Below are positions 30,388 through 48,101 of a DNA stretch of 64,000 nucleotides, piece after piece (the first letter of the stretch is position 1; every line of letters starts with the position of its first letter). The position numbers were made by a program, and so were the translations under genes. This stretch comes from Candidatus Nitrosotenuis aquarius. GTDB lineage: Archaea > Thermoproteota > Nitrososphaeria > Nitrososphaerales > Nitrosopumilaceae. The stretch covers positions 1,576,328 through 1,640,327 of the forward strand of contig NZ_CP024808.1 in the NCBI RefSeq assembly GCF_002787055.1, in the 5' to 3' direction. A model generated the notes under the pieces. That model was not told the DNA's origin and ran no database searches. It worked only from the letters and a program-made list of their open reading frames with translations.

Positions 30388-30463
30388 GTATGGTAAGCCT
30401 CTTCGACAAACTATACCATATTAGGTGCTGCCATTTGAAATCAACAAAATAATTTGCTATCAT

Positions 30464-30507
30464 AATCTTACATTTGTAAAGTACCATCCTTATACATCTG
30501 TAAATTT
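30464..30507. repeat. 44-bp promoter cassette, copy 2 (contains operator 15 at 30467-30480)
   Basis: Identical to 24846-24889. Operator CTTACATTTGTAAA, 9-bp spacer, box A TTATACAT and overlapping second palindrome are all unchanged, and it drives the second Met-rich gene. Confidence 0.75.
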
Positions 30508-30518
30508 GCATGTCAGCA

Positions 30519-31340: not shown

Positions 31341-31456
31341 TCCAATTTTTTTGTATTTTTTTGAAATAATTGCTCTATCTGCCAATTCTGTTGGAACACG
31401 AATCATTGTAAATATTCTGATGGGTGGAGTTTGCTTGCGACCGAGAGCACTTTATA

Positions 31457-31477
31457 TATTGGATGAATCATCCAATA
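31457..31477. promoter_or_regulatory. 21-bp perfect inverted repeat before the CbtA-like gene
   Basis: TATTGGATGA-A-TCATCCAATA has 10-bp perfect arms and one central base. It adjoins TTTATATA on the left, and TTAAATAA follows on the right about 28 bp before ATG 31509. That fits an operator for a metal-responsive repressor; the regulator is not identified. Confidence 0.65.
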
Positions 31478-31508
31478 GCTTAAATAATTGCCATAGAAAA
31501 ACGTGACA

Positions 31509-31595
31509 ATGACCCCGTCAAAACATGCCGCAATACTTTATTCGAATGTATCCATCTATGCGGCTGGATTTTCTTACCATTGTGAGATTTCATGA
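31509..31595 (+). CDS. 28-residue frame before cbtA (CbtB remnant or leader peptide)
   Basis: Reads MTPSKHAAILYSNVSIYA..., ending YHCEIS, and its TGA overlaps the ATG of the CbtA-like gene (ATGA). It is placed correctly for a leaderless mRNA. CbtB proteins are about 60 residues with a C-terminal His-rich tail; this could be a shortened form, but the likeness is slight. Confidence 0.3.
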   Translation: MTPSKHAAILYSNVSIYAAGFSYHCEIS

Positions 31596-32323
31596 AAGCG
31601 CATCTTTTTGTTTTAATTGTACTTGTTTCGGGGTTTTCCGCGGGAACTGTTTATGGTTTTATCAACTTTATAACAACAGAGCCGTTTCTTGATTCTGCAA
31701 TAGAGCTGGAAAATCGTGCTATGTTTGAATCCGGCGAAGAAAAAGACGGTCCAGAGTTCAGAGCAGAGTATGACGCATATCGATACTGGCAAAAGAGCGG
31801 CATGGTGCTGGCAGGCGGAATATATGGCCTTGCCATAGGTTCACTTTTTGGAATAGTTTTTGCCTATTCGAGAAATACGTTGCCTGGAAAACACCACGTA
31901 CAAAAAACACTGTTTCTGGCAGCTTTGATGTGGTTTACAGTATTTATGATTCCGTTTCTGAAATATCCAGCAAATCCGCCCACCGTGGGTGACCCCAACA
32001 CCATAGTTTACAGGGCTATTCTGTATCTTTCCTTTATTGCTATTTCTGGACTTGGTGCTCTGGCCTTTTACAGACTATACAAGAAACTCTCAAAGAGCAA
32101 AAAAATTCTGGCGTTTGCGGGCTACGCATTATTCATCAGCATCGCGTTTGTCCTGATGCCTCAGAACCCAGACAAGGTGTTGGCTCCAATGGATCTGGTA
32201 AACGGGTTTAGGACAATGTCTGCAACCGGCGTAACCATCTATTGGATAGTCAATGCGGTTATCCTTGGAGCCTTGTGGCAGAAACTCCAAGCAAGACATA
32301 AGATGCAAAAAGAACTTCAGTAA
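31592..32323 (+). CDS. cbtA: CbtA-like cobalt transporter subunit
   Basis: A 243-residue protein with about five membrane helices. The order SGFSAGTVYGFINFITTEPFLDSAI, then GGIYGLAIGSLFGIVFAY, then PFLKYPANPPTVGDP, is the CbtA family pattern (cobalt uptake, vitamin B12 supply). Nitrososphaerota make cobalamin, so cobalt uptake makes sense. The 21-bp operator and the short frame lie upstream. Confidence 0.75.
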   Translation: MKAHLFVLIVLVSGFSAGTVYGFINFITTEPFLDSAIELENRAMFESGEEKDGPEFRAEYDAYRYWQKSGMVLAGGIYGLAIGSLFGIVFAYSRNTLPGKHHVQKTLFLAALMWFTVFMIPFLKYPANPPTVGDPNTIVYRAILYLSFIAISGLGALAFYRLYKKLSKSKKILAFAGYALFISIAFVLMPQNPDKVLAPMDLVNGFRTMSATGVTIYWIVNAVILGALWQKLQARHKMQKELQ

Positions 32324-32348
32324 AAGACAAAGCCGACTCTCACAATAA

Positions 32349-32945
32349 CTATGTTCTTGATATTGTAGTAGAGTTCAAAACGCCTATCTCTACATCAATC
32401 TTGTCGGGGTTGCCATAGCTGATCAGGATCCTGTCACCGTCCTTTGGTACATAGTGCTGAAACTGCGAATTTGCCTTGCCGTTTACCACAAATGAAATCT
32501 GGTTGTCAAAATCACTACAGTATGAGGCGCCGCTGTCCAATGTAAGGCAGTTGTTGGCTAGCGTCATGTTGAGTGTCTGCAAAAACATGCCAAGCCAGGC
32601 CTTTCTTGAATGGTTGTGGAGCGTAACCCCATCACCATTCTCAAAATGTGTGAGAAGATCTTTATTTTGGTACTTGCTACCGGAAAAATCAACTGCTTTG
32701 CCGTCAACAAACACCATGAAGGCAGCATGAGTGTGTCCTTGAGTTGGTTGGGCGGCCTTGGCGCCAGTCACATTACTGATGGATGAAACCTGGATATTTT
32801 TTTGTGGCGACATCATGAATGAAACAGCGGAAAATCCTATGAACACAACGAAGGTGACCAAAACCGCCAAAACGCTAAGTACGATGACTTTACGCGATCT
32901 CTCTAGACTCATAACTTGTTTCAGCGCGTCAAATATTTGTACCAT
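32349..32945 (-). CDS. Membrane-anchored extracellular protein, unknown
   Basis: A 198-residue protein with one N-terminal membrane helix (VIVLSVLAVLVTFVVFIGF) and an external domain with GHTHAAFMVFVDG and TLHNHSRKAWLGMF: several His residues that could bind metal, and two Cys. I do not recognise the family. It is convergent with cbtA (gap of 25 bp) and divergent from the next small gene. Confidence 0.6.
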   Translation of the reverse strand: MVQIFDALKQVMSLERSRKVIVLSVLAVLVTFVVFIGFSAVSFMMSPQKNIQVSSISNVTGAKAAQPTQGHTHAAFMVFVDGKAVDFSGSKYQNKDLLTHFENGDGVTLHNHSRKAWLGMFLQTLNMTLANNCLTLDSGASYCSDFDNQISFVVNGKANSQFQHYVPKDGDRILISYGNPDKIDVEIGVLNSTTISRT

Positions 32946-32990
32946 GGTTTGGCAACAGACTATTTATCAAAATTCATCACATGAAAGTAA

Positions 32991-33254
32991 ATGAACAGAA
33001 AACTGGCCAAACTGATCATCGTTTCTGTACTTGTTGTCATTGCAGCTGCAGCATCACTTGCATTTCTTAGTTTTCTTCCACGTAACGTCACCGAATCAGT
33101 AACTGTCATAACCGTAGACCAAACTAGTTGCACCGTCCAAACGTCAGACAAGTTCATCCTCAAGATCAAACCATGTGATGTAAAACCGGGAGAGACCGTA
33201 ACTGTTACCTATGATGAAAAAATGAAGGAACGTTTTCGTGCCACTACGCCCTGA
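32991..33254 (+). CDS. Small exported hypothetical protein
   Basis: An 87-residue protein with a signal/anchor helix (LIIVSVLVVIAAAASLAFL) and a short beta domain with two Cys (SCTVQ, KPCDV) that could form a disulfide. No family recognised. Divergent from the previous gene across a 45-bp spacer. Confidence 0.55.
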   Translation: MNRKLAKLIIVSVLVVIAAAASLAFLSFLPRNVTESVTVITVDQTSCTVQTSDKFILKIKPCDVKPGETVTVTYDEKMKERFRATTP

Positions 33255-33309
33255 TGCGAAGACACGAATGTCATAAATCTTCATTAATCACTTGCCCTCA
33301 ATATTTGCG

Positions 33310-33762
33310 ATGCCTCCAGTAAACATACCTCAAAGCATGATAACTGAGCACGTCAACTGGCACACAAAGCCAGGCAAGCCAAATCAAGGAGGTCGCACAA
33401 TTCCAGGAGGTCAGCCTGGCTCCGGAGAAGAGTTCCTTAACTGGCATAAAGGATTCATCTCGCGATATAAAAAATGGCGAAAACAAAACGGCGAGCCTGC
33501 AATAAAAGCATGGTCCAAGATTCCGGCCGCACTAAACCCAATCCCCCCAAACCTGAATCCGCCTGATGTCATGGCATTCAACACGCTTGATAGTTTCGGA
33601 ATATTTCTTGAGGGCGGAGTTCATGCCACTTTGCATAACCGGGCATCTGTTGTGTATGGCGAGCCCGTACTTGCGTCATTTGAATCCCCCAGAAGCTCGT
33701 ACTTTTGGAAACTCCACGGCCTAATTGACAAATGGAGAAAGGACTGGGTAAAGGCTCACTGA
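33310..33762 (+). CDS. Tyrosinase-like protein with complete His set (copy 2)
   Basis: A 150-residue protein homologous to 19952-20425. Histidines at the CuA-like EHVNWHTK and FLNWHKGFISRYKKW, at VHATLHNRA, and at FWKLHGLIDKW match the type 3 copper pattern of tyrosinases. It is short for a tyrosinase (usually 280 or more residues), so it is a minimal form or a distant relative. TTG 33292 is an alternative start. It stands alone between the secreted protein and the Bil-like operon. Confidence 0.55.
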   Translation: MPPVNIPQSMITEHVNWHTKPGKPNQGGRTIPGGQPGSGEEFLNWHKGFISRYKKWRKQNGEPAIKAWSKIPAALNPIPPNLNPPDVMAFNTLDSFGIFLEGGVHATLHNRASVVYGEPVLASFESPRSSYFWKLHGLIDKWRKDWVKAH

Positions 33763-33847
33763 ACGGTTTTGTCAAGTCTTCATCGGTTTGTTATTCGTGT
33801 TAAATTCGTCGGCTGAATGGATATTTTCGTCAAAAATCACACAATAG

Positions 33848-35242
33848 TTATTGGATCCCGATATGATCATTATTCGCAAGTTTCCAAAATTTTGTATTTT
33901 CTCTAAATTTACTAAATATTTCTAATGGTTGTGTATTACATATGCAGTCATTTTTAGCTGAATATGTTAATTCCAAGTGTCCAAACGGCGGCTCAATGGA
34001 CATGTTGATAAAATTTCCTTTTGATTTGATGTTGCTTGCCAATTTCGCCATTTCGGCAAACATTATGACTGCAGAAGCTGGAGAAAGAAAAGGCAATACT
34101 CCAAGGACTTCCTCCTGATTCTTGGTTCTGATTACTCCTTCTTCACATCTAGGAATAAAATTATCTTTAATATGTTCACCAAATCTGCACATTATGCACC
34201 ATTCTTTTTTGGGAATATGCCTGCCGAAATTGGTTCCCCAGTTCTTAGTAGTAGTGGCATGGAGAACTAGAGGTGGAAAATTATTTTGTATTGTAGACCA
34301 GACATTTTCAGCATTAGCAAGGCAGAGTATGAGATCGGGAGGGTATTTACTGAATTCGCGCGTGCCTGAGAACTGGGAATATGATTTTTTGATAGGGAAT
34401 GCTTCTCTACCGTTCGATGCAATAACATTATTGCAAACAACTACTTTGTCTTTAGAATGTGTAGCATCATGTGCACTGAACGGCAAAGATCTATTGCAGT
34501 TAGAGTATGTGATTATATCTGGATCAATCAGAAAAAATCTACCCTTCCAATTTGTCAAAGAAATCAGATAATCCAATGAAGAGCCAACTGCACCGCAGCC
34601 TATCTGATAGATAGTACCAAAATCAAAATCATTACAAAAATCTGGATTCTGTAATCCGACCGAGCTGGCTCCATTCGAGTAATCATATAATGAATACCAT
34701 TTTTCAAAAGAATCGCTTTCTTTTTTGATAGCTTTCTTGAATACTTGAGCAACACCAAAACAAGCTGCAAACGATGGGCCAATCGGGTTGTTACTTCCGC
34801 TATAATGTATTTCTCCTGCACGATTACCGAATCCGCAACCGGAAATCCAGCCGTCTGAATTGATCCACGTGAATGGTTTGTCTGACTTAACTCCATTCCC
34901 AATAGCCAGTATGTCATCAACATCTTGAGGAATATGCTCAAAAGAAAATTCTCCATATGGATCAATTTCACTCATTAATTGCTTTATCTCCATTTTCAAA
35001 TCTGATTGTGTGTGGTGTATGATGTTCTGACAATTTTGCATGTCTATTGTGATTTTTCTGCACCATCTTGCAAGTATATTGCAGGCAAGTAGTGTCATGC
35101 ACTGAATTTCAAATGACTCGACTATTCTTGGATCTACGATTATGCCTAGATGATAATTGTCTAACTCTTTGATGCTCTCCGAATGATTAGTTCTGTCATC
35201 TCGTTCATTATGCCATGCACCTTTGTCCAAAGGAAATTTCAT
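33848..35242 (-). CDS. E1-like (ThiF) ubiquitin-activating enzyme, Bil-type operon
   Basis: A 464-residue protein. An N-terminal extension (about 200 residues) precedes a ThiF/E1 Rossmann domain: IYQIGCGAVGSS (nucleotide loop, near 220), FLIDPDII, and SNCNRS with the Arg used in adenylation. CIMCRF near 365 and PRCEEG near 380 offer zinc or catalytic cysteines. In a Bil system this position (last gene) holds BilD, the E1. Its ATG overlaps the JAB stop (ATGA). It has no fused JAB, in contrast to the 1-3.7 kb cluster. Confidence 0.8.
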   Translation of the reverse strand: MKFPLDKGAWHNERDDRTNHSESIKELDNYHLGIIVDPRIVESFEIQCMTLLACNILARWCRKITIDMQNCQNIIHHTQSDLKMEIKQLMSEIDPYGEFSFEHIPQDVDDILAIGNGVKSDKPFTWINSDGWISGCGFGNRAGEIHYSGSNNPIGPSFAACFGVAQVFKKAIKKESDSFEKWYSLYDYSNGASSVGLQNPDFCNDFDFGTIYQIGCGAVGSSLDYLISLTNWKGRFFLIDPDIITYSNCNRSLPFSAHDATHSKDKVVVCNNVIASNGREAFPIKKSYSQFSGTREFSKYPPDLILCLANAENVWSTIQNNFPPLVLHATTTKNWGTNFGRHIPKKEWCIMCRFGEHIKDNFIPRCEEGVIRTKNQEEVLGVLPFLSPASAVIMFAEMAKLASNIKSKGNFINMSIEPPFGHLELTYSAKNDCICNTQPLEIFSKFRENTKFWKLANNDHIGIQ

Positions 35243-35778
35243 TTTTTTCTCAAATCGATAAAATTTGAATATGATTGGTTTTCAATAATGAAATGTGTTT
35301 TCACATATGCCGTAGACAATCTGTGAAATGACCCTTTTGTAAACCGGTGTACTCCACAGTTTACTAATGGTAACATGCCATCAATACCATAATTCGGTAC
35401 AACAATGGAGATCAATCCCTCTGATTTGAACGCGGCCCATTTGTTGTCTCCAGGGGAATGAGATACCCATGAACTCGGGTGAGAATGTACTTGAGCGATC
35501 TGAATTATCTTGTTGTTATTTAGTGTCTTTACGAATTCAAAATTAGATCTATGTGATGTTGTAACACGCCCAAAATCGGACTCTGTGTCTGGCGCTATTA
35601 TCGCAGTTATTGATATTTCATTTCCAACGATATTTCCACCCCAATAAACCAGTCCTTCATTTGAAGGTGCCATCTTGGCATAATCATCAAGAACTTTCTC
35701 GGTGTCTCTTATTACTCCTGCAGATATGCAATAAGACATGCTGTCACGTTCTACTTTTCTTTCAAAAAAATGAGTCAT
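35239..35778 (-). CDS. JAB/JAMM deubiquitinase-like peptidase, Bil-type operon
   Basis: A 179-residue protein with the JAMM set: Glu in NEGLVYWGG (about 41), QVHSHPSSWVSHSPGD (HxHP then SxxD, about 96-109). It would process or remove the ubiquitin-like protein. It matches BilC by order and domain. Two bases separate the E2 stop from its ATG, and the E1 overlaps its end. Confidence 0.85.
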   Translation of the reverse strand: MTHFFERKVERDSMSYCISAGVIRDTEKVLDDYAKMAPSNEGLVYWGGNIVGNEISITAIIAPDTESDFGRVTTSHRSNFEFVKTLNNNKIIQIAQVHSHPSSWVSHSPGDNKWAAFKSEGLISIVVPNYGIDGMLPLVNCGVHRFTKGSFHRLSTAYVKTHFIIENQSYSNFIDLRKK

Positions 35779-35780
35779 TA

Positions 35781-36257
35781 CTATTTCATTCTTCCTTGAT
35801 ATATGTCACGATTATTTATGCGAGCATAGATTGCTTCTAAGATTGATCTGAGATCTACTAGGGTGTTGGTTTTTTGATTTTGCTGCCAGCCAGCAAGAGT
35901 CCAATCAGCATCTTTGTGAACGCCAGAATAATCAGCGTATGCTTTTCTAGAACATGGATTGCAGATGCATGGATGCTGGTGGAAAAAACTGTCGTCTCCT
36001 TTAGGATATGCATTTTTTGTTCCTTTTTCACCTGTAACTGGATCAATGAATTCTAGATAAAGAGGCCATTCTTTGTAGTTATCAAATCTGACTTCTAGAA
36101 TGTATTTTTCATTATCTAGTTTCGACTTTAGATTCACATTAAAGATCTGCTCTTTCTCGTTAATTTGTGATATTTCAAAATACTCTGATTGTATGAGTAG
36201 TTTGCAATCCTCAATTTCTTTTTTAATAACAGCTAATGAGATTTCAGATTGAATCGT
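35781..36257 (-). CDS. E2-like conjugating enzyme without a standard start codon, Bil-type operon
   Basis: The full E2-like fold needs the frame from 36257: ISLAVIKKEIEDCKLL (helix 1), FNVNLKSKLDNEKYILEVRF, YKEWPLYLEFIDPVTGEK, then HQHPCICNPC (a Cys at the active-site place) and DADWTLAGW with later helices, about 158 residues. Between the Ubl stop TAA (36258-36260) and GTG 36137 this frame has no ATG, GTG or TTG. Starting at that GTG would remove helix 1 and most of strand 1. So translation must use a rare codon (ACG or ATT just after the stop), or pass through the in-frame TAA. It corresponds to BilB. Confidence 0.7.
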   Translation of the reverse strand, partial: TIQSEISLAVIKKEIEDCKLLIQSEYFEISQINEKEQIFNVNLKSKLDNEKYILEVRFDNYKEWPLYLEFIDPVTGEKGTKNAYPKGDDSFFHQHPCICNPCSRKAYADYSGVHKDADWTLAGWQQNQKTNTLVDLRSILEAIYARINNRDIYQGRMK

Positions 36258-36533
36258 TTAAACTGCCACTCCAAGATCGGTAAAAACAAGTATGTCTCCA
36301 TCTTTGATCCCATAACTTACAAGTGGCCTTTTTGGATCAAATGGCTTGTCTGGTTCATTCTCTGGGTTAAGTTGGTATTTTCCATCCTTTGAAAAGCTAA
36401 AATGTTCTATTACAGCACTGATTACTTCGCTTATTTTCGCAGTTTTTTGGAATACTGCATCTTTCCATGCGCCTTTTGTGGTTTGTATTGTGATCGTAAG
36501 TTCATTATCGTTTTTCTTTTTCTCTTCAGCCAT
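36258..36533 (-). CDS. Ubiquitin-like (beta-grasp) protein, Bil-type operon
   Basis: A 91-residue beta-grasp protein: LTITIQTTKGAWKDAVFQKTAKISEVISAVIEHF (strands 1-2 and helix), KYQLNP, PLVSYGIKDGDILVFTDLG. A charged N-terminal tail (MAEEKKKND) precedes it. It ends VAV, one Gly before that, rather than Gly-Gly. The Ubl (BilA-like) is the first gene. ATG 36533 is about 27 bp from TTTAATAAGG, fitting a leaderless mRNA; a 13-bp palindrome overlaps the start codon. Confidence 0.75.
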   Translation of the reverse strand: MAEEKKKNDNELTITIQTTKGAWKDAVFQKTAKISEVISAVIEHFSFSKDGKYQLNPENEPDKPFDPKRPLVSYGIKDGDILVFTDLGVAV

Positions 36534-36542
36534 ACCGTATGG
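36530..36542. promoter_or_regulatory. Palindrome over the Ubl start codon
   Basis: CCATAC-C-GTATGG, perfect 6-bp arms, covers the start of the Ubl gene. On a leaderless mRNA it could be an operator for the operon. The rest of 36543-36798 holds this operon's box A and the promoter of the plus-strand operon; nothing else is clear there. Confidence 0.4.
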
Positions 36543-36798
36543 TACAGTAATTTACCTTATTAAAGATATTGGTATGAGATTCTATCGTCTTTGTCTATTC
36601 TGAGAATAAAATTTCATCGATCAGAGGTTTAGACTTAATGACAAAAGACAAACGTTGAATATAAAACGAATTAATCAGTTCAAGGCAACATGATACCTTA
36701 TCCTGTTAAGACTTGATCCATGTGAGAAAGATAAATCGAATCTAGTGTTTATTACTACATGAGATAAGGCTAATACCTTAATCATCTATTAGTTCCAT

Positions 36799-37977
36799 AT
36801 GAAAACTGATGAGATTAAATTTTGGGAAGATCTCTCTGTCCCAGTTGAAGACATAAGAGAAATGATCAATGCTAGTGTTCGTCCCACTACAAAACTCCTT
36901 AACAGACTAAACAAATATTCAGGCTGGCTCGAAATTTTGAATGCACATTATGACACTTCATATAGCGAGTTGAAATTAATAATTAGACATTTAGCAACTC
37001 ATAGAAAAGCAGAGTTTGCTAGATTATTCTGTTTGATAATTTTTGCTTTACAAGTAGACAGAATATCCATCAAGAATAGAATTCCAAATGATATATTAGA
37101 AAAATATAAAACCAAATTGGAAGACAATTCGGTAAGCTACGAATCAATTCTATTTCTTTTGCTTAAAAACAAACCTCAAACTTTGAAAGGTGTATTTTAT
37201 GATTCTATAATCAATCGATCACCAACAAGAACATTCATTTGTGAACCAACAATAGCTGTAACAGAAAAATTGCAGAATATTTCAGAAAACGATATTCAAG
37301 AGTTTTTCAAAAAATTAAGAGAGGATGGTATTATCAGAAGAGAAGTAAAGCTATGGTGGTTCGAGACTAACAATTCAAAGACAAAGATCTTTGTGAGATT
37401 GGAAAGCCGAAACAGAAATCCCATACACCAGGTAACAAAAAATTTGTTTCTCAAAACGGCCGGAATTAAGGGGATGGTATTATCAGAAAAGGGGAATAGA
37501 CTAGATATCGTATCGTCAAGAGATACCCAAGCAGTCACTAAGTGGATGGAGTTGCTAATTGAACATATATCAAAAAAGAGTGTCACGTTTTCCAGAATCG
37601 TTCAGGAATTTGAAACTTCTGAAATTTCAGATTTCTTGACTAGATTAAAAAATGGTAAAATAGCAGAAATGCGCCTGTTAGGAATAGAACGTAGGAATGC
37701 ACCAGTAGTAAATTCTCCCACCATACGTTTGGAATCATCAAACATGGAACCAATAACTGAGTCTCTAAAAGAGTTAGAAAGCAGTCATAATTTGAATCTC
37801 ATTTCAGAAATGAAAGATATTTTGGGAATAACTGTTGGTATTGGAGATATAACCTATAGACTGAATACTCTTACCAACAAAGATGAAAAAATTATTCTTA
37901 ATTTTGAAAACCGAAACATGTCAGAAGACAAAAAGGATGCGGTAATTTCCACTTTAATCACGGCCATCAGAAAGTGA
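36799..37977 (+). CDS. Unknown protein, first gene of an AT-rich three-gene operon
   Basis: A 392-residue soluble protein, Lys/Asn-rich. The first third is helical; the rest appears to contain a two-fold repeat (NDIQEFFKKLREDGIIRREVKLWWFETNNSK and SDFLTRLKNGKIAEMRLLGIERRNAP, each followed by a VRLESRNRNPI or IRLESSNMEPI strand). I recognise no family. The ribosome reaches the nuclease-like gene 4 bp after its stop. Confidence 0.6.
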   Translation: MKTDEIKFWEDLSVPVEDIREMINASVRPTTKLLNRLNKYSGWLEILNAHYDTSYSELKLIIRHLATHRKAEFARLFCLIIFALQVDRISIKNRIPNDILEKYKTKLEDNSVSYESILFLLLKNKPQTLKGVFYDSIINRSPTRTFICEPTIAVTEKLQNISENDIQEFFKKLREDGIIRREVKLWWFETNNSKTKIFVRLESRNRNPIHQVTKNLFLKTAGIKGMVLSEKGNRLDIVSSRDTQAVTKWMELLIEHISKKSVTFSRIVQEFETSEISDFLTRLKNGKIAEMRLLGIERRNAPVVNSPTIRLESSNMEPITESLKELESSHNLNLISEMKDILGITVGIGDITYRLNTLTNKDEKIILNFENRNMSEDKKDAVISTLITAIRK

Positions 37978-37981
37978 TTGT

Positions 37982-39067
37982 ATGAGCATACAAATTCGAA
38001 AGGGTTATTCTGTCAGCAGTGATGACGTACTTAGTCATTTACTTTTAAAAAAATTGGAATCTGAAAAACTGATTTCAACATCAATAAAAAAATCTGTGAC
38101 ATGTAACCGTTGTAAGAATAGAACGTTGTTGAATAGCAATAACATTGAGAATTTTATAATTTGTTCAAATTGTAACAAGCGTCAGAATATATCTAAAACA
38201 AACTCTGAAAATGAGATTTCCAAGATAAACTATGACAAAATTATTCAAAATATTGACTCCATGTTATCAGACATAGAAAATGTTTATGACAAAAATTCTA
38301 GATATTGGAAAGTGAAAATTGATGGTAAGATTATTCCTTTACTGATATTAGAAATTTCCGACTCCAATTATATCATGGCGAATGCAGAAAAACAATCTTC
38401 ATTATTTATTATACTGGATAGTGAGAAACACGCACACCTACTTAATCAATTCAACAAATCTCAGTTTGTGACATTTATCGAGTTGTTAGAAGATAAATCA
38501 CTGTTGATTAAACAGCTACAAAATGTTACGACAATCTTTGATACAAATTATTCGATAGAACTCGAAAATAAATTTGATGAATTAAGATCATCATTAACAC
38601 CAACGCAATTCGAACACTTTTGCGTGGATTTGTTAGAACAAATAAAAACAAATTATCCGAAACTGCAAACATTTTATGGTTATCTGGCCAGATTTCAGAA
38701 CACAATATTAAATTCGAAAATTATTCCAATGGGAGGACCAGCTAATCCAGATTTTGTCATAATAGACTTATTGCAATATCTACAATCTGGCTTACAACCT
38801 GAAAAATTTGGTGAAGCTAAAAGATATGGAGGAAAAACAACATTCACCTGGGAAAAGTACTCTGCAGCAATAATGCACGGTAATGCCAGTGATGCCCTAT
38901 TTCTTGTTTCTACTACAGATATTCAGTTTGAAATATGGAGGAATATATTAGAAAATAATCGAGATGGGAAATTCAAATACGTACTACTTGATAAACCACT
39001 CATGTTAATTCTGATAAAATGTCTTGGCCTTGAAAACATTATAGAAGATCATTTAAATTCAAAATGA
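37982..39067 (+). CDS. Zinc-ribbon and PD-(D/E)XK-like nuclease protein
   Basis: A 361-residue protein. Residues 38-62 form a zinc ribbon (CNRCK...CSNCNK). Residues 190-330 look like a restriction-type endonuclease: LTPTQFEHFCVDLLEQI, then PANPDFVIIDL and GEAKRYGG, giving the D...ExK active site. AT-rich and close to Bil-like genes, it is a candidate defence effector. It overlaps the membrane protein gene by 4 bp. Confidence 0.65.
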   Translation: MSIQIRKGYSVSSDDVLSHLLLKKLESEKLISTSIKKSVTCNRCKNRTLLNSNNIENFIICSNCNKRQNISKTNSENEISKINYDKIIQNIDSMLSDIENVYDKNSRYWKVKIDGKIIPLLILEISDSNYIMANAEKQSSLFIILDSEKHAHLLNQFNKSQFVTFIELLEDKSLLIKQLQNVTTIFDTNYSIELENKFDELRSSLTPTQFEHFCVDLLEQIKTNYPKLQTFYGYLARFQNTILNSKIIPMGGPANPDFVIIDLLQYLQSGLQPEKFGEAKRYGGKTTFTWEKYSAAIMHGNASDALFLVSTTDIQFEIWRNILENNRDGKFKYVLLDKPLMLILIKCLGLENIIEDHLNSK

Positions 39068-39546
39068 TTAAACAAATTGTAATCTGGATAATCGTAATCA
39101 TTGAAAAGATTTTGGGAATTCAATTCAGACGAGAAAACCTCAATCTCGAATTATGGAATCTATTTTCCGTAGCAGTTATTCTTAGTGTCACTTTTTTGAT
39201 AGCTATCTACTCTCCATTTCTACAAGTGATTGACGATATGGTTAACTCGTTGCAAACAGAATGGATATACCATCAGGCATTAGCAAGTTTCAAGTTTTCA
39301 TTTGTCACCACACCCATTCAACTTTCACTTGTCTGTCTTTTCAGAGATGTCAAAAACCCGCTTGTGAAATTTAAGAATACTTTTGCACTATTGTTAGCTG
39401 GTTTTGTAGGTGTATATGCGATGATTAGCATTATGCAGATTTTTCCAGAATCAATCCCTTCAGAGACATTGAGTATACTATGGCTATATCCACTCATAAC
39501 AGTAGCAATTGTGAGATTATCAATAGCTCAGGAAGTAAGAAAATAA
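39064..39546 (+). CDS. Membrane protein, last gene of the nuclease-like operon
   Basis: A 160-residue protein with about four membrane helices (VIWIIVIIEKIL; FSVAVILSVTFLIAIY; FALLLAGFVGVYAMISIM; LYPLITVAIVRL). Unknown family. Its ATG overlaps the nuclease stop (ATGA), so the two are made together. Membrane proteins of this kind are frequent in defence operons, but that is only circumstantial. Confidence 0.55.
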   Translation: MIKQIVIWIIVIIEKILGIQFRRENLNLELWNLFSVAVILSVTFLIAIYSPFLQVIDDMVNSLQTEWIYHQALASFKFSFVTTPIQLSLVCLFRDVKNPLVKFKNTFALLLAGFVGVYAMISIMQIFPESIPSETLSILWLYPLITVAIVRLSIAQEVRK

Positions 39547-39561
39547 AATGATTTTATGAAT

Positions 39562-40038
39562 TCATTTTTCATCAATTTTCTCCTTTTCCAAAACATCCTG
39601 ATAGATCCTCTTGCAGAATGTCTCAAAGAATGATCTTTGCTTGCACATTGCATCGTATTCCGCAATCAAATCCACGATATGGTATCTTTTCCACTTTTCA
39701 TATTTGGCCTCTTCAAGTGATTTTTTGAGCTTGTCATCTGACATCATGTCTTCCTCAGACATCAATCGAAGGCCTTTTTTGACAAAACCGGGGACATACC
39801 CAAACGAGTCAATCTCGTACAGCATTATGTGGCCAAACTTGGAATACGGATCATATCTTGTGGCTTCGCCTACTACCTTTCCATAATCGTCAACCAAATA
39901 ACCATCGTAAAGCGACTCGTATTTCTTTGAGCTGTCAGCAGGTATGTCGACGCTAAAATCATCCGCAAAATTGTCGTCTTCATCATCTGAGATGACGCTC
40001 CCTCCTGTATTGCTGCATTTTTTTCTGTGCCTCTTCAA
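39562..40038 (-). CDS. Unknown acidic protein of the integrated element
   Basis: A 158-residue protein with an acidic N-terminal stretch (ISDDEDDNFADDFSVD) and helical C-terminus (KSLEEAKYEKWKRYH). I recognise no family. It overlaps the 3' end of the DUF2958-like gene by 56 bp. It may act with the DUF2958-like protein and the ATPase. Confidence 0.5.
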   Translation of the reverse strand: MKRHRKKCSNTGGSVISDDEDDNFADDFSVDIPADSSKKYESLYDGYLVDDYGKVVGEATRYDPYSKFGHIMLYEIDSFGYVPGFVKKGLRLMSEEDMMSDDKLKKSLEEAKYEKWKRYHIVDLIAEYDAMCKQRSFFETFCKRIYQDVLEKEKIDEK

Positions 40039-40288: not shown

Positions 40289-40303
40289 TTGCTCACCTCA
40301 TTA

Positions 40304-42145
40304 TCAAGTATTCAAGAAATCCTTCCCAATCCGCATCTTTTCAAATACGGCCGGAACTTTTTGGACTGGCAGAAACAAAATCCGGTTCTCCTTGGATTTG
40401 GCAGACAAGGCTTCAATGAGCTTTGAATCGTCCGAGCAAACGATCACTCTGTCGAATTCTTGCAGGTTTCTTTTCAGATTGCCAGATATGTTGGATGTGC
40501 CAAGCTCCACTTCAATCACCGTGCTGCGATCCAGCACTTCTATGTCTGGACCATCTTTGTTTTTTCGAATATCATATCCCTTTGCTGTGAGACTTTCCGC
40601 TATCCAGTTGACATAGAATTCGTGTTTGACTCCTGGAACCGTCCCAGGCCTCTGGTACAGGATCCTAGGCGCCCCCCTGCCGAGCTTGACTCTGACCAAC
40701 TCAATTTTCTTCTTCCTGCAAAGCTCATCCGTCACATTGGTGTATCTCTTGTCATCCCATCCTAACTTTGTTCGCCTTTCGATGACGGAAAGAAACGGTT
40801 CCTTGTCTATGCTTTCAAGGAAAGTCTTGTTGTCCTCATCGTCTCCGTTGTCTTTGTCGTCTTCTCTGTCTTTTGCTGCTTTTGCTTTGTTTGCCGTTTC
40901 TGTTGTTGCTGTTGCCGCTGCCGCTTCCATTACCGCTGCATCCGCTGCCACTTCATGCGGCATGATGTCGAAGCTGTCAGCTGTCACAAGAAACGGCTCG
41001 TACCCTGAGACAATTGCAATTGCAGTTGTGCGGGGAAGTCTGACAAAGCGGTCGGCTAGATACTCATATTCGACCTGGTCGACGAAGGCGGCAGCCTCGG
41101 ACAGGAGGCGGATGTCTTCCTGATGCTGGAGGCGGAAGGCTATTTTCGTGCCCACGTTCTTGAAGATGTCCTTCTCTATGTTGCTCGGAGATTGGGTGAT
41201 CAGCATAAGACCGCATCCGCGCTTTCTGAGACGTGTGGCAAACTCTGTTGCCGGCCAGGATTCTGTCACGACGATTTTATGTAGAATCTTAGGGACCAGC
41301 AACTGGGCCTCGTCTGCTATGAAAAGATTGGAGACCCAGTCGCAGGGCCCACGATTCAGCATCTTTCTCAGATAGTAGGTCGTGATTGTGTTGTAGATGA
41401 GGCGGATCTCAGCACCATACGCCACTAGGGCATCAAGTGCATGCAAGTCGATTATGACGTTCTTTTCATCGAGTCGGGAAAAATCTGGATTCGACTTGTT
41501 GCAGAGAAAAATTTCCTTCAATGGAGAGCGCATGAACGGGTCAAGCCTGACCAGGAGGGCAGTCTTCGTTTTGTCTAGAGCGGTAAGTTTTTGCCGGTCG
41601 TAATATTTGATGTTCTTGATCAGTTCATCTATGCTGTGGCTCTCACTGATCGTCTCTTGTAGAACGAAATTCATTTGAGCTGATAAATCGACGTACTCCT
41701 TCTCTATTCCTTTGAAGACGGTCTCTCTCATCAGCTCTCTGATGAGTGCCGGGTCGCCAAGATCAAACGGATTGATTTTCAGATTCTTATCGACTGCAAA
41801 ATATTCCGTCTGGCCTTTCAGCTTCGGAATAATGTTCTTCCACTCTCCCTCTACATCTACTACTAGCAGTTTGATTTTCTGAAAAGATTCGTAATTTGAA
41901 GACTTGACTGCAAGGTTCATCGCAAATCTGGTTTTGCCGGTTCCTGTCTGTCCGCTCACTAATACATGAGTGGCCAGAAAGTTCACCGGAAAGTTGAACG
42001 GAAGGCCATTAGACAGAGTACCGACTCTGAGGCCCCAATAATCGAGGATCGGTGAATTTTCTATCCTGAATCGGAAGAATTTGCATCTTGGACAGAATCT
42101 TTTGTCGCGGACGAAATTACCGCATATGCAGTACCAGTTCACCAT
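40304..42145 (-). CDS. HerA/VirB4-like ATPase with zinc ribbon and nuclease-like C-terminus
   Basis: A 613-residue protein. A zinc ribbon (CICGNF...CPRCKF, about 6-23) precedes the P-loop SGQTGTGKTR near 66 and the acidic VVDVEGEWK strand; IADEAQLLVPKI is the Walker B near 268. A Glu/Lys/Ala-rich linker (about 405-445) follows. At the C-terminus, GPDIEVLDRSTVIEVELGTS has the D...ExE-type layout of restriction-like nucleases. Such ATPases move DNA in plasmid conjugation or defence. First gene of the downstream operon. Confidence 0.75.
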   Translation of the reverse strand: MVNWYCICGNFVRDKRFCPRCKFFRFRIENSPILDYWGLRVGTLSNGLPFNFPVNFLATHVLVSGQTGTGKTRFAMNLAVKSSNYESFQKIKLLVVDVEGEWKNIIPKLKGQTEYFAVDKNLKINPFDLGDPALIRELMRETVFKGIEKEYVDLSAQMNFVLQETISESHSIDELIKNIKYYDRQKLTALDKTKTALLVRLDPFMRSPLKEIFLCNKSNPDFSRLDEKNVIIDLHALDALVAYGAEIRLIYNTITTYYLRKMLNRGPCDWVSNLFIADEAQLLVPKILHKIVVTESWPATEFATRLRKRGCGLMLITQSPSNIEKDIFKNVGTKIAFRLQHQEDIRLLSEAAAFVDQVEYEYLADRFVRLPRTTAIAIVSGYEPFLVTADSFDIMPHEVAADAAVMEAAAATATTETANKAKAAKDREDDKDNGDDEDNKTFLESIDKEPFLSVIERRTKLGWDDKRYTNVTDELCRKKKIELVRVKLGRGAPRILYQRPGTVPGVKHEFYVNWIAESLTAKGYDIRKNKDGPDIEVLDRSTVIEVELGTSNISGNLKRNLQEFDRVIVCSDDSKLIEALSAKSKENRILFLPVQKVPAVFEKMRIGKDFLNT

Positions 42146-42203: not shown

Positions 42204-42995
42204 TCACTTGAGAAACTTTTCTAATAATTCCCTGATCTCACTTATCATATCGTCAAGAGATGGCATTGGTTCTCTACTGAGTCTTGTCAGGCCTGTCTCA
42301 AGATATGGTTCCAGCGTTTTCACTATGCCGTCAGGGAAGAATTGATCAATACCTGTAAATGTGACATCTTTGCTCTTGCATTTTTCCAAAAATAATGCCT
42401 TTACTTTTTCTCTGTCAAATTTTTTGGTTTTTAGCAATCTCCATACATCGTAATAATCCCTGATCTTAGTGCGTTGTATGATGGCGCGTGTTTTCTCTGC
42501 AAGTATCTCATCTAGTGAATATACTCTAACATCGAATTCCGGATAGTCGAATACCCTTGGCATCTTTTTTGTATGTGTCTCTCCGGTCACTTCTTCCCTC
42601 GTTATCTCTATCTTTACGGTGTCCTTGCCCAGTGGGCCATCATATTGAAACCTGCTCATAAGATATCCCTCGTTACTATGAGGCCTATCTTTCAATCGAA
42701 CAGCCATACCGACTGCATCCTTGACAATTTTTGGAACTTCATCCTTCAGTACTTTTTCCAAAGTCTTTGGGTCCATGTCGTCAATCAGAGTGAAATCAAG
42801 GTCCTCAGAGAGCCTCCAGCCTTCGGGAAAGTGTACCTTGGAGAGGGCAGTACCTCCCTTGAAAATGAGCTTGCTACCTATCGAGCTTTTCATAATGCCA
42901 AATAACAGCCATCCTAATGCGTAATCCTTGCTTACTGCTGACGGGTTGAGCTTTTTCTCACCAGCAATTTTCATTATGTCGTCTTTACTCAACAT
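42204..42995 (-). CDS. AbiEii-like nucleotidyltransferase toxin
   Basis: A 263-residue protein with the nucleotidyltransferase signature LIFKGGTALSKVHFPEGWRLSEDLDFTLID (GG...DLDF catalytic motif, about 40-70) and RVYSLDEILAEKTRAIIQR later, as in AbiEii. Type IV toxins of this family block growth, often in response to phages, by modifying tRNA. The AbiEi gene directly abuts it, no gap. Confidence 0.9.
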   Translation of the reverse strand: MLSKDDIMKIAGEKKLNPSAVSKDYALGWLLFGIMKSSIGSKLIFKGGTALSKVHFPEGWRLSEDLDFTLIDDMDPKTLEKVLKDEVPKIVKDAVGMAVRLKDRPHSNEGYLMSRFQYDGPLGKDTVKIEITREEVTGETHTKKMPRVFDYPEFDVRVYSLDEILAEKTRAIIQRTKIRDYYDVWRLLKTKKFDREKVKALFLEKCKSKDVTFTGIDQFFPDGIVKTLEPYLETGLTRLSREPMPSLDDMISEIRELLEKFLK

Positions 42996-43814
42996 CTAAT
43001 ATCCTCTCCAACTCATCAAATCCTTCTTGGTCCTGTTTATGATCAAACCGTACTCTTTGGAATATTCTAATGCTTTTTTTGGTCCACTCGGATCCAGCCA
43101 CTTGAGATCTTTTGGAACTTTGTTCAGATCCTTTGATCTGATTTTCTTATTTAATTCTAATATATCGAGTATGTAGAACAGTCTTCTCTTGACAGAATCA
43201 TTTCTCATCTCTTTTGCATAGTCAATGACTTTTGCAAAGTCGATCTCGTTCTGAGATTCCCAAATACCTTTCACTATCTCGTCAAGACCGCCACAATATT
43301 TCGGATAGATCAAACCATCCACAATTGTTTTTTCTCTAGATGATATTTTGAATTTCTCACCCGAAATTTCTTCATCAACTATACCGAAGAATCTCTTTTT
43401 TGAAAATGTAATGAATTTGAATTTGAGCGAACCGTATTCCAGATTTCTCTTTCTCTTTGTTGTTACTACGAAAGTTGTGTTTGGAACCTGTTCCGTCATA
43501 CCCCAGTAATTGAGAGCTGATGCAAATCCTATGTAATAAGGATCTACAATTTCTGATACTATTAGAAAAGGCACTTCGGCCCATTTACCATGATAACCTG
43601 CTTTTGCTGGTATGAGAAGATATTTACCGCGTTCTATCTCCTCGACTCTCCCTTTTTTCCTGAGTCTGTACAGAACGTTCTTTATTGACGCCTCACTAGT
43701 TCCTAAAATTCTACGTGCATCATCTGTTTTGAATACAAATTTCCCTTCCTCTTCTAGGGTGAACAATAGCCTCAGTTCCCTCGGCCCCAAGAGCTTTAAT
43801 TCTTTTGTAACCAT
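42996..43814 (-). CDS. AbiEi-like antitoxin/repressor
   Basis: A 272-residue protein with an N-terminal winged helix (LRLLFTLEEEGKFVFKTDDARRILGTSEASIKNVLYRLRKKGRVEEI, about 12-60) and the AbiEi middle domain (GFASALNYWGMTEQVPNTTFVVTTKRKR). It should repress its own operon and neutralise the toxin. ATG 43814 has GGTGAG 5 nt upstream; TTG 43829 is an alternative. The repeats at 43825-43914 are the likely binding sites. Confidence 0.9.
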   Translation of the reverse strand: MVTKELKLLGPRELRLLFTLEEEGKFVFKTDDARRILGTSEASIKNVLYRLRKKGRVEEIERGKYLLIPAKAGYHGKWAEVPFLIVSEIVDPYYIGFASALNYWGMTEQVPNTTFVVTTKRKRNLEYGSLKFKFITFSKKRFFGIVDEEISGEKFKISSREKTIVDGLIYPKYCGGLDEIVKGIWESQNEIDFAKVIDYAKEMRNDSVKRRLFYILDILELNKKIRSKDLNKVPKDLKWLDPSGPKKALEYSKEYGLIINRTKKDLMSWRGY

Positions 43815-43824
43815 AGTCTCACCT

Positions 43825-43914
43825 AACAAGACTTTGGTTACATAAGTATTAAAATATATCCTTTGTAACGATAGTCTTGTCCAACAAGACTTTAGTTACA
43901 TAAGTATTAGAAAA
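43825..43914. repeat. Two direct repeats with inverted repeats in the AbiE promoter
   Basis: AACAAGACTTTGGTTACATA (43825-) and AACAAGACTTTAGTTACATA (43883-) start copies of about 31 bp, one mismatch plus one indel, 58 bp apart. AGTCTTGT-CCA-ACAAGACT (43873-43891) is a perfect inverted repeat at one copy; the copy near the ATG has an approximate form. Each repeat includes a TATA-like AATACTTAT. This fits cooperative AbiEi binding. Confidence 0.6.
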
Positions 43915-43934
43915 TCATGCGTAAACTGGTCTTG

Positions 43935-44524: not shown

Positions 44525-45715
44525 CTAATCCTCTTTGCAGATCTTCGTTAATGCAACTCTCAACTTTTCGAATTTCTGCGGTTCTGCGGCGATCCCATAG
44601 ATGAGCTTGTCTAGCATGGTCTTATTCTGGTCAACATCGCTGGTTGTAGACGTATCAAGTAACGCGCCGCATCTGTTGCAGAACTTGGAAACATGAGAAT
44701 TCTCAAGACTGCATCTGAAACACTTCCTCGGTTGAGAGGTGACAACAACTGTCTTCTCCTGCGGCCTTATCCCGTTCATGATTGACTGCGCGTTGTCGAT
44801 GTGCTTTCCGTATCTTTTCATGTATGTGGCCGGCATGGCAGAGCCAAACCTCCATCCAAACATCATGCATTGCTGTGGTTCAGTCAGAATTCCCTGTGTC
44901 TCGTCTACTCTAGTGTGCCTGAAAAGGTAGTAGAACACTCTCTTCTTGATTCCGGCCCTCTTGGCTGCCTTTTTCAGAATGGATACGGCAGCAGCATATG
45001 CAATCTGGTTCATCATGTTGGTCTTGCCAAACCCAATCCAGACTGGGCAGTCCGGATGGTTCCTTCCTGGGTGGTGGTCAAGCCATATGGCAAGCGAGGG
45101 CGCAGAAGAGATTATCCTCACAAAGTCGGATCCTATCTTTCCGTCAACGTAGAGTTTTGCCCCTATGGTGTCAAATTCTATGTCGCTTAGATGTAGCGTG
45201 AGGATCTCTTCCAATCTTCTACCCGATTCGAATAGAATCTCAAATAGTGCCCTATCTCTTGGATTGTAGGTTGCACGTAGGAGGGCGTCCTTCTCTTCCG
45301 GTGTGAGGAGGTCCTTTGGAAGTATTGGCCTTTTGTTTTGCGCGCTCGAGGTCTTTTTGATCCATCTGACCTCAGGTGGTGCACCGTCCTCCCAATTTCT
45401 GAACCATTTGTAAAAATGCTTTAGGATCACCTTGTAGTCCCTCTTGGTCCAGTCCGACCAGTCAGTGCTTTCAAACCCTGAGACAAGCTTCACAAAGTCG
45501 TCCTTTGTGGCGTCCGCAAATGACTTTCCAAGCATTCTAGAAATGAGCTTGATGGTGTTGAGACACTTGTGTATCCTTGCAGGGCTGATGCCCTCTGCTA
45601 CTCTGGATTGATGATACTTTAGAATTGATTCTGCATTGTATGGATCCTTGCTAACAAGTTCGAGTTCTCTTTCTATTCTCTTCCTGAGTGGATAGATCTC
45701 TAATGCTCGGCTCAT
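44525..45715 (-). CDS. Tyrosine recombinase (integrase) with C-terminal zinc ribbon
   Basis: A 396-residue protein. N-terminal SAM-like core-binding part (about 30-110), catalytic part with Arg in FESGRRLEEIL, Lys in YVDGKIGSD, HxxR in FRHTRVDE, a later Trp position (FGWRFGSAM), and the nucleophile Tyr in ATYMKRYGK. An extra C-terminal zinc ribbon (CFRCSL...CNRCGALLD, about 335-370) and a helical tail. It would integrate the element. ATG 45715 is about 27 bp from TATAATAG; a TGTAACG palindrome lies just upstream. Confidence 0.85.
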   Translation of the reverse strand: MSRALEIYPLRKRIERELELVSKDPYNAESILKYHQSRVAEGISPARIHKCLNTIKLISRMLGKSFADATKDDFVKLVSGFESTDWSDWTKRDYKVILKHFYKWFRNWEDGAPPEVRWIKKTSSAQNKRPILPKDLLTPEEKDALLRATYNPRDRALFEILFESGRRLEEILTLHLSDIEFDTIGAKLYVDGKIGSDFVRIISSAPSLAIWLDHHPGRNHPDCPVWIGFGKTNMMNQIAYAAAVSILKKAAKRAGIKKRVFYYLFRHTRVDETQGILTEPQQCMMFGWRFGSAMPATYMKRYGKHIDNAQSIMNGIRPQEKTVVVTSQPRKCFRCSLENSHVSKFCNRCGALLDTSTTSDVDQNKTMLDKLIYGIAAEPQKFEKLRVALTKICKED

Positions 45716-45754
45716 CCGCATCACATTGTTTTCTATTATATTCCGTTTTGCGAC

Positions 45755-46064: not shown

Positions 46065-47048
46065 ATGGGGAGGCGTATAATATTAGACGAAGGTCTGCTG
46101 CATGAGGCCTTCCTACCGCAAAATACACTTTGCAGAGACAGCCACAAAAATGAGATTCTCAATTGTTTATCTCCAATAAAGACTGGCAATCTTGCGAGAA
46201 ACCTCTATGTCTATGGCTCCCCTGGAGCCGGCAAATCGACTGTGGTTCGGTCGGTATTGCGTGATCATTTCAAAGACATGCACGTGTACGTCAATTGCTG
46301 GTCGAACAGAACGTCCCACAAGGTCATGGAGGCGATACTCAGTCAGATGGGTTTCATGGTTCACGGAAAAGAGTCCACAAGTGAATTGATTCGCAAATTT
46401 GAGAAGTTAAAGCGCAAGGTCATAATCTGCCTTGACGAAGCAGACCACCTAAAGGACAATGATCTGCTCTATACCTTTACACGAAACTCGTGTCCGCTGA
46501 TTCTGATATCAAACTATTCCTACTCTCCAATAAACATGGACAACAGGATCAGAAGCAGCTTGCATCTGCATGAAGTGGAATTTGGTGGTTATGAGTCGCA
46601 TGAGATAACACAGATACTGCAAGATAGAATAGATTACGGCCTTCACCCACAGTCCATTTCTGGTGAGCTCATCTCTGAGATTGCAAGGTCTAGCGGTGGC
46701 GATGCTAGGGCCAGCATACAGATTCTGAAAAATGCAGCAATCGACGCAGAATCAAGAGGTGCTGAAACTATAGCATTGGATCACGTAAAGATCGCAACAA
46801 AATGCGCAAGAAAGTATCGGCTGTCCTATCTTCTCAGAAAACTGAACGAGCACCAACAGACCCTCTATGAACTGTTAAAGCAGAACAAGGTCATGGACTC
46901 TGGAAGACTGTTCAACCAATATAGAAAATCAATGAACGAGACAGTCACGGACCGCTCTTACCGAAATTACATGACAAAAATGGTTGAGCTTGGTCTTGTG
47001 AGAGAAATTGGTTCCGGTAGATGGAAAAAATACGAAATTTCAATTTGA
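46065..47048 (+). CDS. Orc1/Cdc6-like replication initiator of the integrated element
   Basis: A 327-residue AAA+ protein: YVYGSPGAGKSTVVR (Walker A near 45), IICLDEADHL (Walker B near 122), ILISNYS (sensor 1), SGGDARASIQIL (sensor 2), then a C-terminal winged helix (SYRNYMTKMVELGLVREI). This is the archaeal Orc1/Cdc6 layout, somewhat short (main proteins are about 400 residues), so an element-borne initiator is likely. It points away from the cruciform region and integrase. Confidence 0.8.
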   Translation: MGRRIILDEGLLHEAFLPQNTLCRDSHKNEILNCLSPIKTGNLARNLYVYGSPGAGKSTVVRSVLRDHFKDMHVYVNCWSNRTSHKVMEAILSQMGFMVHGKESTSELIRKFEKLKRKVIICLDEADHLKDNDLLYTFTRNSCPLILISNYSYSPINMDNRIRSSLHLHEVEFGGYESHEITQILQDRIDYGLHPQSISGELISEIARSSGGDARASIQILKNAAIDAESRGAETIALDHVKIATKCARKYRLSYLLRKLNEHQQTLYELLKQNKVMDSGRLFNQYRKSMNETVTDRSYRNYMTKMVELGLVREIGSGRWKKYEISI

Positions 47049-47117
47049 TTTTGTTATTTCCTATGGTTTGCCTAGGTGGAGATTTATACTACCAAGCGAA
47101 AATAGAAAAAAGTTCCC

Positions 47118-48101
47118 ATGCAGCAAGAATGAATACCAGTTGTCATACTTGATGATGAAGTTTACAATCTATACTCTTACAAGTTGGAAGAAGAATTAGA
47201 AAAGCTGGCAATAGAACACACTGCAGAATTATTTGGAAAGAACACGCATTTTTTCAATGTCAAGAGAAAAATAGTGAGCAAGAGCGGGATAGGTAGCACG
47301 CCAGACGGTTATTTGGTGGATCTAACCAATGACAAATTCTTCATCATTGAAGTAGAGCTGAGCTCTCATGATATCGTCCGTCATGTGATGAATCAACTCT
47401 CAAGATTCAAAATGGCCATGGACAACTCTGAGGCAAGATACGAACTGGCAAAATTCCTAGCCGGCACAACTGATACAGTGAAAAATAAGAACAAGGTTTC
47501 CGATATGGATTACTTGGCTAGGATTATTGGGAAGGGAGTGGGAATCTTCATAATTATTGATAGTATCTCAGAGCAGCTCAATGAAGTGGTTGAGTATCTG
47601 GCAAAGGATGGAACGGATGTAAGGGCAATACCTTTCGAGACATACACGAACAACCGGAACCAATCCCTCCATAAATTCACCACATTCACCAGAGAGACTC
47701 TGCAGAAAGAAGCCAAGAAGTGGACCTTCAAGTGGACAACAATTCCTGTGGACGAACATCTCGACAAAATCAACAATGACATGAAGAATGTCTTCTCCAC
47801 GTTAAGCAAACAGATTTGCTCTCTGCCGAACGTCAAGGAAAAATCAAGAAAGAATTGGATCACTTTCCAGACTTCGCCACTCAAGAACTTTTGCACAGTA
47901 AAATTTCTCCCGGACTGTCTGGAAGTACACATAAAATCCAATGATTCCTTCATGGATGAAAAGGGTATTACTAGGAAAATCAAAAGAACTCCGGCTTGGA
48001 CTTTTGACAGAGTGTTTACTATTAGTTCACAGAAAAATATTGAAGATGCGATGCATCTGATCCGACAAGCGTACCAGTGTACATGTGTCGAGCGCACTTG
48101 A
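47118..48101 (+). pseudogene. PD-(D/E)XK-like nuclease with an early in-frame stop (TTG 47184 possible restart)
   Basis: From ATG 47118 the frame reads MQQE, then TGA (47130-47132), then IPVVILDDEVYNLYSYKLEEELEKLAIEH and on for 320 residues. The part after the stop still looks coding up to TTG 47184. GSTPDGYLVDLTNDKFFIIEVELSS (D...ExE) is a nuclease-like active site as in NucS-type and restriction enzymes; the C-terminal half (about 220-305) looks like a DUF5655-type domain. So the gene either is disrupted by one point change or begins at TTG 47184 as a shorter but possibly active protein. Confidence 0.6.

What the first reader, a model, noticed from the sequence alone, without database searches (positions are those of the whole stretch)
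33848..36533. Archaeal Ubl-E2-JAB-E1 operon in the order of bacterial Bil antiphage systems
Four abutting or overlapping genes encode a beta-grasp Ubl, an E2-like protein, a JAMM peptidase (HSHP...SxxD) and a ThiF-type E1, exactly in the order BilA, BilB, BilC, BilD. In bacteria BilABCD attaches the Ubl to phage tail tip proteins. A complete set in a Nitrososphaerota-like genome beside a nuclease-like operon would be a new setting for this defence.
Basis: partly seen in the sequence, partly recalled or inferred. Interest (0 to 1): 0.85.

Follow-up and report, generated by a model that had tools for sequence, protein, structure and literature searches.

The report
Archaeal Bil-type ubiquitin-like defence operon
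An archaeon carries a complete four-gene ubiquitin-like tagging kit, related to the bacterial Bil antiviral system and sitting in a slot where a close relative keeps other virus-defence genes, so this kind of immunity is probably not confined to bacteria.

Summary
In detail: window 36533-33848 (minus strand) encodes, in order, a beta-grasp Ubl, an E2, a JAMM protease and an E1, the gene kinds and order of BilA-B-C-D. Profile searches place the protease (best PDB hit BilC, 1.5e-19) and the E1 (BilD, 9.9e-29) in the Bil family, well ahead of any other. The AlphaFold2 model of the E2 matches BilB best; the Ubl model matches ubiquitin, SUMO and ISG15. Catalytic residues are invariant across related operons from Nitrososphaeria, haloarchaea, Bacteroidota, an actinobacterium and a rhizobium. 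The E1 tree puts the window with another thaumarchaeon inside a clade with Bacteroidota, so transfer between domains is likely. The operon lies in the lowest-GC 5.7 kb of the window; in a same-genus genome the same slot holds a short Argonaute system. The variant is compact: single-domain Ubl, E1 without the helical CYS domain, E2 without the CEHH motif. Other archaea of the class carry CYS-domain Bil operons. Most likely mechanism: the protease trims the Ubl, E1 and E2 attach it to virion proteins, and progeny are spoiled. Target and antiviral activity are inferred. Caveat: this copy's E2 lacks a standard start codon.

The parts
36258..36533 (-). Ubl (BilA-like), 91 aa, one beta-grasp domain; conserved Gly88 followed by a VAV tail
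   Evidence: Pfam YukD 5.6e-7; AF2 pLDDT 83; Foldseek top hits SUMO, Caldiarchaeum Ub, ISG15, probability 1.00; alignment
35781..36257 (-). E2 (BilB-like), 158 codons, conserved Cys99; no ATG/GTG/TTG start before 36137
   Evidence: PADLOC BilB 0.0024; AF2 pLDDT 89, pTM 0.86; three best folds are BilB chains; alignment; junction
35239..35778 (-). JAMM/JAB protease (BilC-like), 179 aa; invariant E41, H98, H100, S108, D111
   Evidence: PADLOC BilC 8.7e-7; PDB BilC 1.5e-19; alignment
33848..35242 (-). E1 (BilD-like), 464 aa; N-terminal Bil region plus ThiF-type adenylation domain, Cys366 in a short loop, CxxC and CxC zinc-site candidates
   Evidence: PADLOC BilD 8.7e-12; PDB BilD 9.9e-29; alignments
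36799..39546 (+). Divergent three-gene cassette (392, 361 and 160 aa) of unknown function, in the same low-GC slot
   Evidence: belonging to the same system is not shown
40304..42145 (-). HerA-type ATPase of the neighbouring element (context)
   Evidence: Pfam DUF87 3e-14; conserved in G225 at 88%
42204..43829 (-). AbiEii/AbiEi toxin-antitoxin pair (context)
44525..45724 (-). Tyrosine integrase (context)
   Evidence: Phage_integrase 2.6e-6
46065..48101 (+). Cdc6-like ATPase and a DUF5655 / PDC-S18 candidate defence protein (context)

Best explanation
This is a compact, archaeal version of the Bil antiviral ubiquitin-like conjugation system, carried as an exchangeable defence cassette next to an integrase-bearing element. 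Proposed action: the JAMM protease trims the last three residues (VAV) of the Ubl to expose Gly88; the E1 adenylates that glycine and takes the Ubl on Cys366; the Ubl passes to Cys99 of the E2, which attaches it to lysines of a viral structural protein, so that the virions made are defective. The protease may also recycle the Ubl. Shown here: homology, folds, invariant catalytic residues, conserved gene order, transfer pattern and defence-slot context. Inferred: each reaction, the viral target and the antiviral effect.
For: BilB/BilC/BilD matches in order; PDB profile hits BilC and BilD well ahead of all other families; E2 fold closest to BilB and Ubl fold; invariant catalytic residues and order in related operons; patchy distribution and a tree nesting the window with Bacteroidota; lowest GC of the window; in G225 the slot is filled by a short Argonaute pair, and other copies of the module carry other defence-type genes; related operons lie beside known defence genes.
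Against: No activity or target is known. The E2 of this copy has no standard start codon. E1 lacks the CYS domain and E2 lacks the CEHH motif of the characterised complex. Neighbours were chosen by eye, so no enrichment statistic exists.
Confidence: 0.7

Rival explanations
1. A Bil-family operon by descent that is decaying in this genome: loss of the E2 start codon leaves Ubl, JAMM and E1 but little or no E2, so the system is silent here.
For: Seven of nine relatives keep an ATGA or GTGA overlap for the E2 start; the window has GTTTAAACG and no ATG/GTG/TTG for 40 codons.
Against: All four frames are otherwise open; every aligned catalytic residue is kept; a GGAG motif precedes the junction and ATT is a permitted rare start; an assembly error is possible.
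Confidence: 0.17
2. A Ubl conjugation system of Bil ancestry used on host proteins (regulation or stress), not against viruses.
For: No viral target is known in archaea; related E1-E2-Ubl systems have cellular roles in eukaryotes (established knowledge).
Against: Patchy presence, plasmid carriage, and exchange with Argonaute in the same slot fit defence better than housekeeping.
Confidence: 0.1
3. A sulfur-transfer or cofactor operon of the ThiF/MoeB kind with ThiS/MoaD-like Ubl.
For: The E1 carries a ThiF-type domain and Cys366 lies in a short loop, as I recall for ThiF and UBA5.
Against: The E1 has the N-terminal Bil region; its score to the Bil profile is 622 bits against at most 64 for other ThiF-domain matches in the phylum; an E2 fold is encoded in the operon.
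Confidence: 0.03

Closest known systems
Bacterial BilABCD with solved E1-E2-Ubl complex and DUB (PDB 8tyz, 8tz0, 8tyx, 8tyy)
   Same: Four gene kinds; BilC and BilD are the best PDB sequence matches and BilB the best E2 fold; the N-terminal region of BilD is shared
   Different: 8tyz BilD has about 87 residues between the CxxC region and the last domain where the window type has about 24; E2 without CEHH (motif from PMC11354881); Ubl has one domain
Bil systems behind the PADLOC BilA-D models
   Same: BilB, BilC and BilD matches in order; BilD model length 453, near the window's 464
   Different: No BilA match for the window Ubl; the BilA model has 162 positions, about two domains
CYS-domain Bil operons of other Nitrososphaeria (G193, G103, G177, G137, G915)
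   Same: Ubl, E2, JAMM, E1 in order where all four were read
   Different: E1 with an insertion of roughly 60 residues holding the conserved Cys, and E2 with C-x5-E
Caldiarchaeum subterraneum ubiquitin system
   Same: Archaeal Ub, E1, E2 and JAMM; its Ub is a top fold match of the Ubl
   Different: Includes a RING E3 (PMC11354881); none is encoded next to the window operon
Bub (PDB 9ea4, Citrobacter BubCD)
   Same: JAMM and E1 activities in one phage-defence-linked operon (family from knowledge)
   Different: BubCD is one 458-aa chain; it matches far more weakly than BilD (2.5e-5 against 9.9e-29)

Membership tests
Bil (BilABCD), broad sense | Four genes in the order Ubl, E2, JAMM, E1 | tested here: met
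   order conserved in relatives
Bil (BilABCD), broad sense | E1 and JAMM closer to BilD and BilC than to any other family | tested here: met
   9.9e-29 against 1e-8, and 1.5e-19 against 1.9e-7
Bil (BilABCD), broad sense | E2 fold with conserved catalytic Cys | tested here: met
   BilB chains are the three best folds; Cys99 invariant
Bil (BilABCD), broad sense | Ubl with a conserved C-terminal Gly behind a cleavable tail | tested here: inconclusive
   Gly88 nearly invariant with a short tail; cleavage not tested
Bil (BilABCD), broad sense | Protection against viruses by tagging virion proteins | not testable with these tools
   needs experiment
8tyz-type Bil (CYS-domain subtype) | E1 with an inserted helical CYS domain carrying the catalytic Cys | tested here: not met
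   about 24 positions against about 87 residues; alignment
8tyz-type Bil (CYS-domain subtype) | E2 CEHH motif | tested here: not met
   after Cys99 the conserved residues are R104, Y107, H116, W119, W124; no E at +6
ISG15-like two-domain BilA | Two tandem Ub-like domains | tested here: not met
   91 aa, one domain
ThiF/MoeB sulfur-transfer operon | E1 without the Bil N-terminal region and without an E2 partner | tested here: not met

The most novel reading that the evidence does not exclude
Archaea outside the Asgard and Caldiarchaeum lines run at least two lineages of Bil immunity. The compact one (short-loop E1, non-CEHH E2, single-domain Ubl with a GxAV tail) was exchanged with Bacteroidota and tags capsid or other non-tail proteins of archaeal viruses, a target class I do not know of for bacterial Bil.
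Probability: 0.3. Interest if true: 0.85.

Novelty: new variant of a known kind. Interest (0 to 1): 0.63.

Why it matters
Complete E1-E2-Ubl-DUB cascades tied to virus defence are known to me from bacteria; the paper library searched here holds a single paper that names BilABCD, and it describes them as bacterial. Finding them in Nitrososphaeria and on haloarchaeal plasmids, in two E1 layouts, suggests that this immunity crosses domains. It supplies archaeal proteins for asking where eukaryotic ubiquitination and its antiviral use came from, and the compact E1 gives a test of whether the CYS domain is needed for E1-to-E2 transfer.

Tried and rejected
Reading the E2 as the 118-aa GTG ORF (36137): disfavoured because the model places a helix (4-21) and a short strand upstream of it; a truncated product is not excluded, and identity in codons 1-40 is low (7-11 of 40). 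A Ubl-E2 fusion by readthrough of TAA: considered because the frames agree, but seven of nine relatives use ATGA or GTGA overlaps in another frame and the other two also have separate genes. Sulfur transfer: rejected. Viral carriage: no relative found in viral contigs. Weak E1 matches in the first class search: three that I read were Bil operons of another type; L004 was a 45-residue fragment and was set aside. Claiming the compact E1 as wholly new: rejected, because the PADLOC BilD model length (453) suggests compact members may already be among described Bil systems. A phylum search with the CYS-type profile found none in 349 genomes, a sample that listed none of the known carriers. Two Bil papers looked up by DOI from memory were not held.

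Full report
What is there. The window is part of a 1.697 Mb single-contig genome; its same-family relative G127 is labelled Thaumarchaeota, and Nitrosopumilaceae is my inference. On the minus strand, 36533 to 33848, four genes follow each other almost without gaps: a 91-aa Ubl, a 158-codon E2 frame, a 179-aa JAMM protease and a 464-aa E1.

Family. PADLOC matches the last three to BilB (0.0024), BilC (8.7e-7) and BilD (8.7e-12), in that order. Profiles built from related operons and searched against PDB sequences put BilD first for the E1 (9.9e-29; next 1e-8) and BilC first for the protease (1.5e-19; next 1.9e-7). The E2 profile finds only BilB, at an insignificant 0.85, but its AlphaFold2 model (mean pLDDT 89, pTM 0.86) has BilB chains as the three best folds (Foldseek E 1.7e-3 to 4.7e-3, probability 1.00), with human UBE2D among the next. 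The Ubl matches YukD in Pfam (5.6e-7), and its model (pLDDT 83) matches SUMO, Caldiarchaeum ubiquitin and ISG15.

Relatives. One close archaeal operon (G127/L016; E1 44%, Ubl 61%, E2 43%, JAMM 51%), three from Bacteroidota MAGs (E1 37-42%, Ubl 54-57%), haloarchaeal ones, mostly on plasmids (E1 25-26%), and more distant ones on Mycolicibacterium and Mesorhizobium plasmids keep the order Ubl, E2, JAMM, E1 (in Halopenitus I did not resolve the Ubl gene). Residues invariant in the alignments include JAMM E41, H98, H100, S108 and D111, E2 C99, R104, W119 and W124, and E1 G215, G217, D240, K266, C349, C352 and C366. The Ubls of the clade that holds the window end G-[V/I/A]-A-V, so a three-residue tail behind the conserved glycine is the likely substrate of the protease (inference).

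Two layouts. Weak matches in other genomes of the class turned out to be Bil operons of a second type (G193 in the same genus, G103, G177, then G137, G915, G235 and G835; the G235 contig ends inside the protease gene, and for G137 I read only the Ubl and E1). Most of their E1s have an insertion of roughly 60 residues between the CxxC and the last domain (shorter in G835), and that of G193 aligns along PDB BilD through its CYS-domain cysteine (5.5e-32). Their E2s, where read, mostly carry C-x5-E as in the CEHH motif described in PMC11354881; G835 departs from it. The window type lacks both features: its Cys366 sits in a short loop and aligns with the CYS-domain cysteine. The E1 tree separates the two types (100/99); the window pairs with G127 (98/98) inside a clade with Bacteroidota (100/100), while haloarchaeal copies branch elsewhere. 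Transfer between domains is the simplest reading; its direction is not shown, and the fork that separates the thaumarchaeal pair plus two Bacteroidota from the third is weak (82/67).

Distribution. Strong compact E1 matches occur in 2 of 300 genomes of the class, in 1 of 398 of the phylum, where other matches reach at most 64 bits against 622, and in 3 of 194 genomes of the haloarchaeal class, two of them already known. The CYS-type profile found 9 of 400 class genomes, one of them being G127 itself, and none of 349 in a phylum sample.

Setting. The Bil operon and a divergent three-gene cassette form the lowest-GC 5.7 kb of the window (0.343; mean 0.418, sd 0.025; 1 of 195 windows as low). Next to it lie a HerA-type ATPase, an AbiEi/AbiEii pair, a tyrosine integrase, a Cdc6-like ATPase and a candidate defence protein. 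In same-genus genome G225 both flanks align at 72-79% (window 29948-33763 and 39576-45634), with some rearrangement, while 33764-39575 has no match there, and a short Argonaute with its partner protein sits beside the HerA module instead. Other copies of that module carry Prok-E2_E, JAB-ThiF and TIR genes (G225, L082), or a Schlafen-domain gene, an Argonaute-like partner (by eye) and a BsuBI/PstI restriction pair (G082, L083). Related operons elsewhere lie beside type I and II restriction-modification genes (G177), a short Argonaute (G915), Wadjet JetC and a type III methyltransferase (L018), a dCTPase (L019), an Argonaute (L022), and a CapP regulator plus an Snf2-type helicase (L017). These neighbours were chosen by eye, so no enrichment statistic is claimed.

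How it likely works. The JAMM protease trims the Ubl, the E1 activates it, the E2 receives it and attaches it to lysines of viral structural proteins. The enzymology is as described for bacterial Bil in PMC11354881; virion targeting is from my knowledge of the Bil literature, which could not be read here. Every step is inference for this operon.

Weak point. In most relatives the E2 starts in a 4-bp overlap with the Ubl stop; here the junction reads GTTTAAACGATT, leaving the E2 in the Ubl's frame behind a TAA and without ATG, GTG or TTG for 40 codons. A GGAG motif precedes it. A start at ATT, a truncated product, recent damage and a sequence error all remain possible.

Verdict. This is a compact variant of Bil in an archaeon, one of several archaeal Bil lineages found here.

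Noticed in passing
window 749-3704 (- strand): A second ubiquitin-like cluster in the same window: a 444-aa JAB-ThiF fusion (ThiF 1.7e-24, Prok-JAB 1.1e-5; PADLOC E1-E2 9e-23), a 212-aa protein that looks E2-like by eye (PCYIHAWNRSW), a 134-aa protein and a zinc-finger protein.
   Followed up: partly
window 36240-36270: Ubl and E2 are in one frame separated by TAA; the 4-bp start/stop overlap seen in most relatives is gone and the E2 has no standard start.
   Followed up: partly
window 36530-36542: A 13-base palindrome (CCATACGGTATGG) spans the Ubl start codon, with a TATA-like stretch upstream; it might be an operator (sequence, seen by eye).
   Followed up: no
L082 11869-16501 (G225 contig C48): Beside a HerA module copy lie a CARF-like protein, a Prok-E2_E protein (4.5e-26), a JAB-ThiF protein and a TIR-domain protein (8.9e-16): another ubiquitin-like cluster in a related slot.
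   Followed up: partly
L083 1337-7330 (G082): Beside another HerA copy lie a BsuBI/PstI restriction enzyme with its methylase and a Schlafen-domain protein with an Argonaute-like partner (by eye).
   Followed up: partly
L017 6647-8564 and L018 6643-8566: The Bacteroidota operons have a divergent CapP-type metalloprotease (7.6e-62 for L017) and a sigma-factor-like gene upstream; no such regulator lies directly beside the window operon.
   Followed up: partly
window E1 residue 251; L016-L019 E1: The window E1 has NCNRS at the adenylation site, while G127 and the Bacteroidota copies have S or T/A there in place of N-R (for example NCSSS), so the arginine is not conserved in the clade.
   Followed up: no
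window 37982-39067: The 361-aa protein of the divergent cassette is rare (4 of 250 class genomes, including this one) and has relatives in G062, G086 and G020; function unknown.
   Followed up: partly
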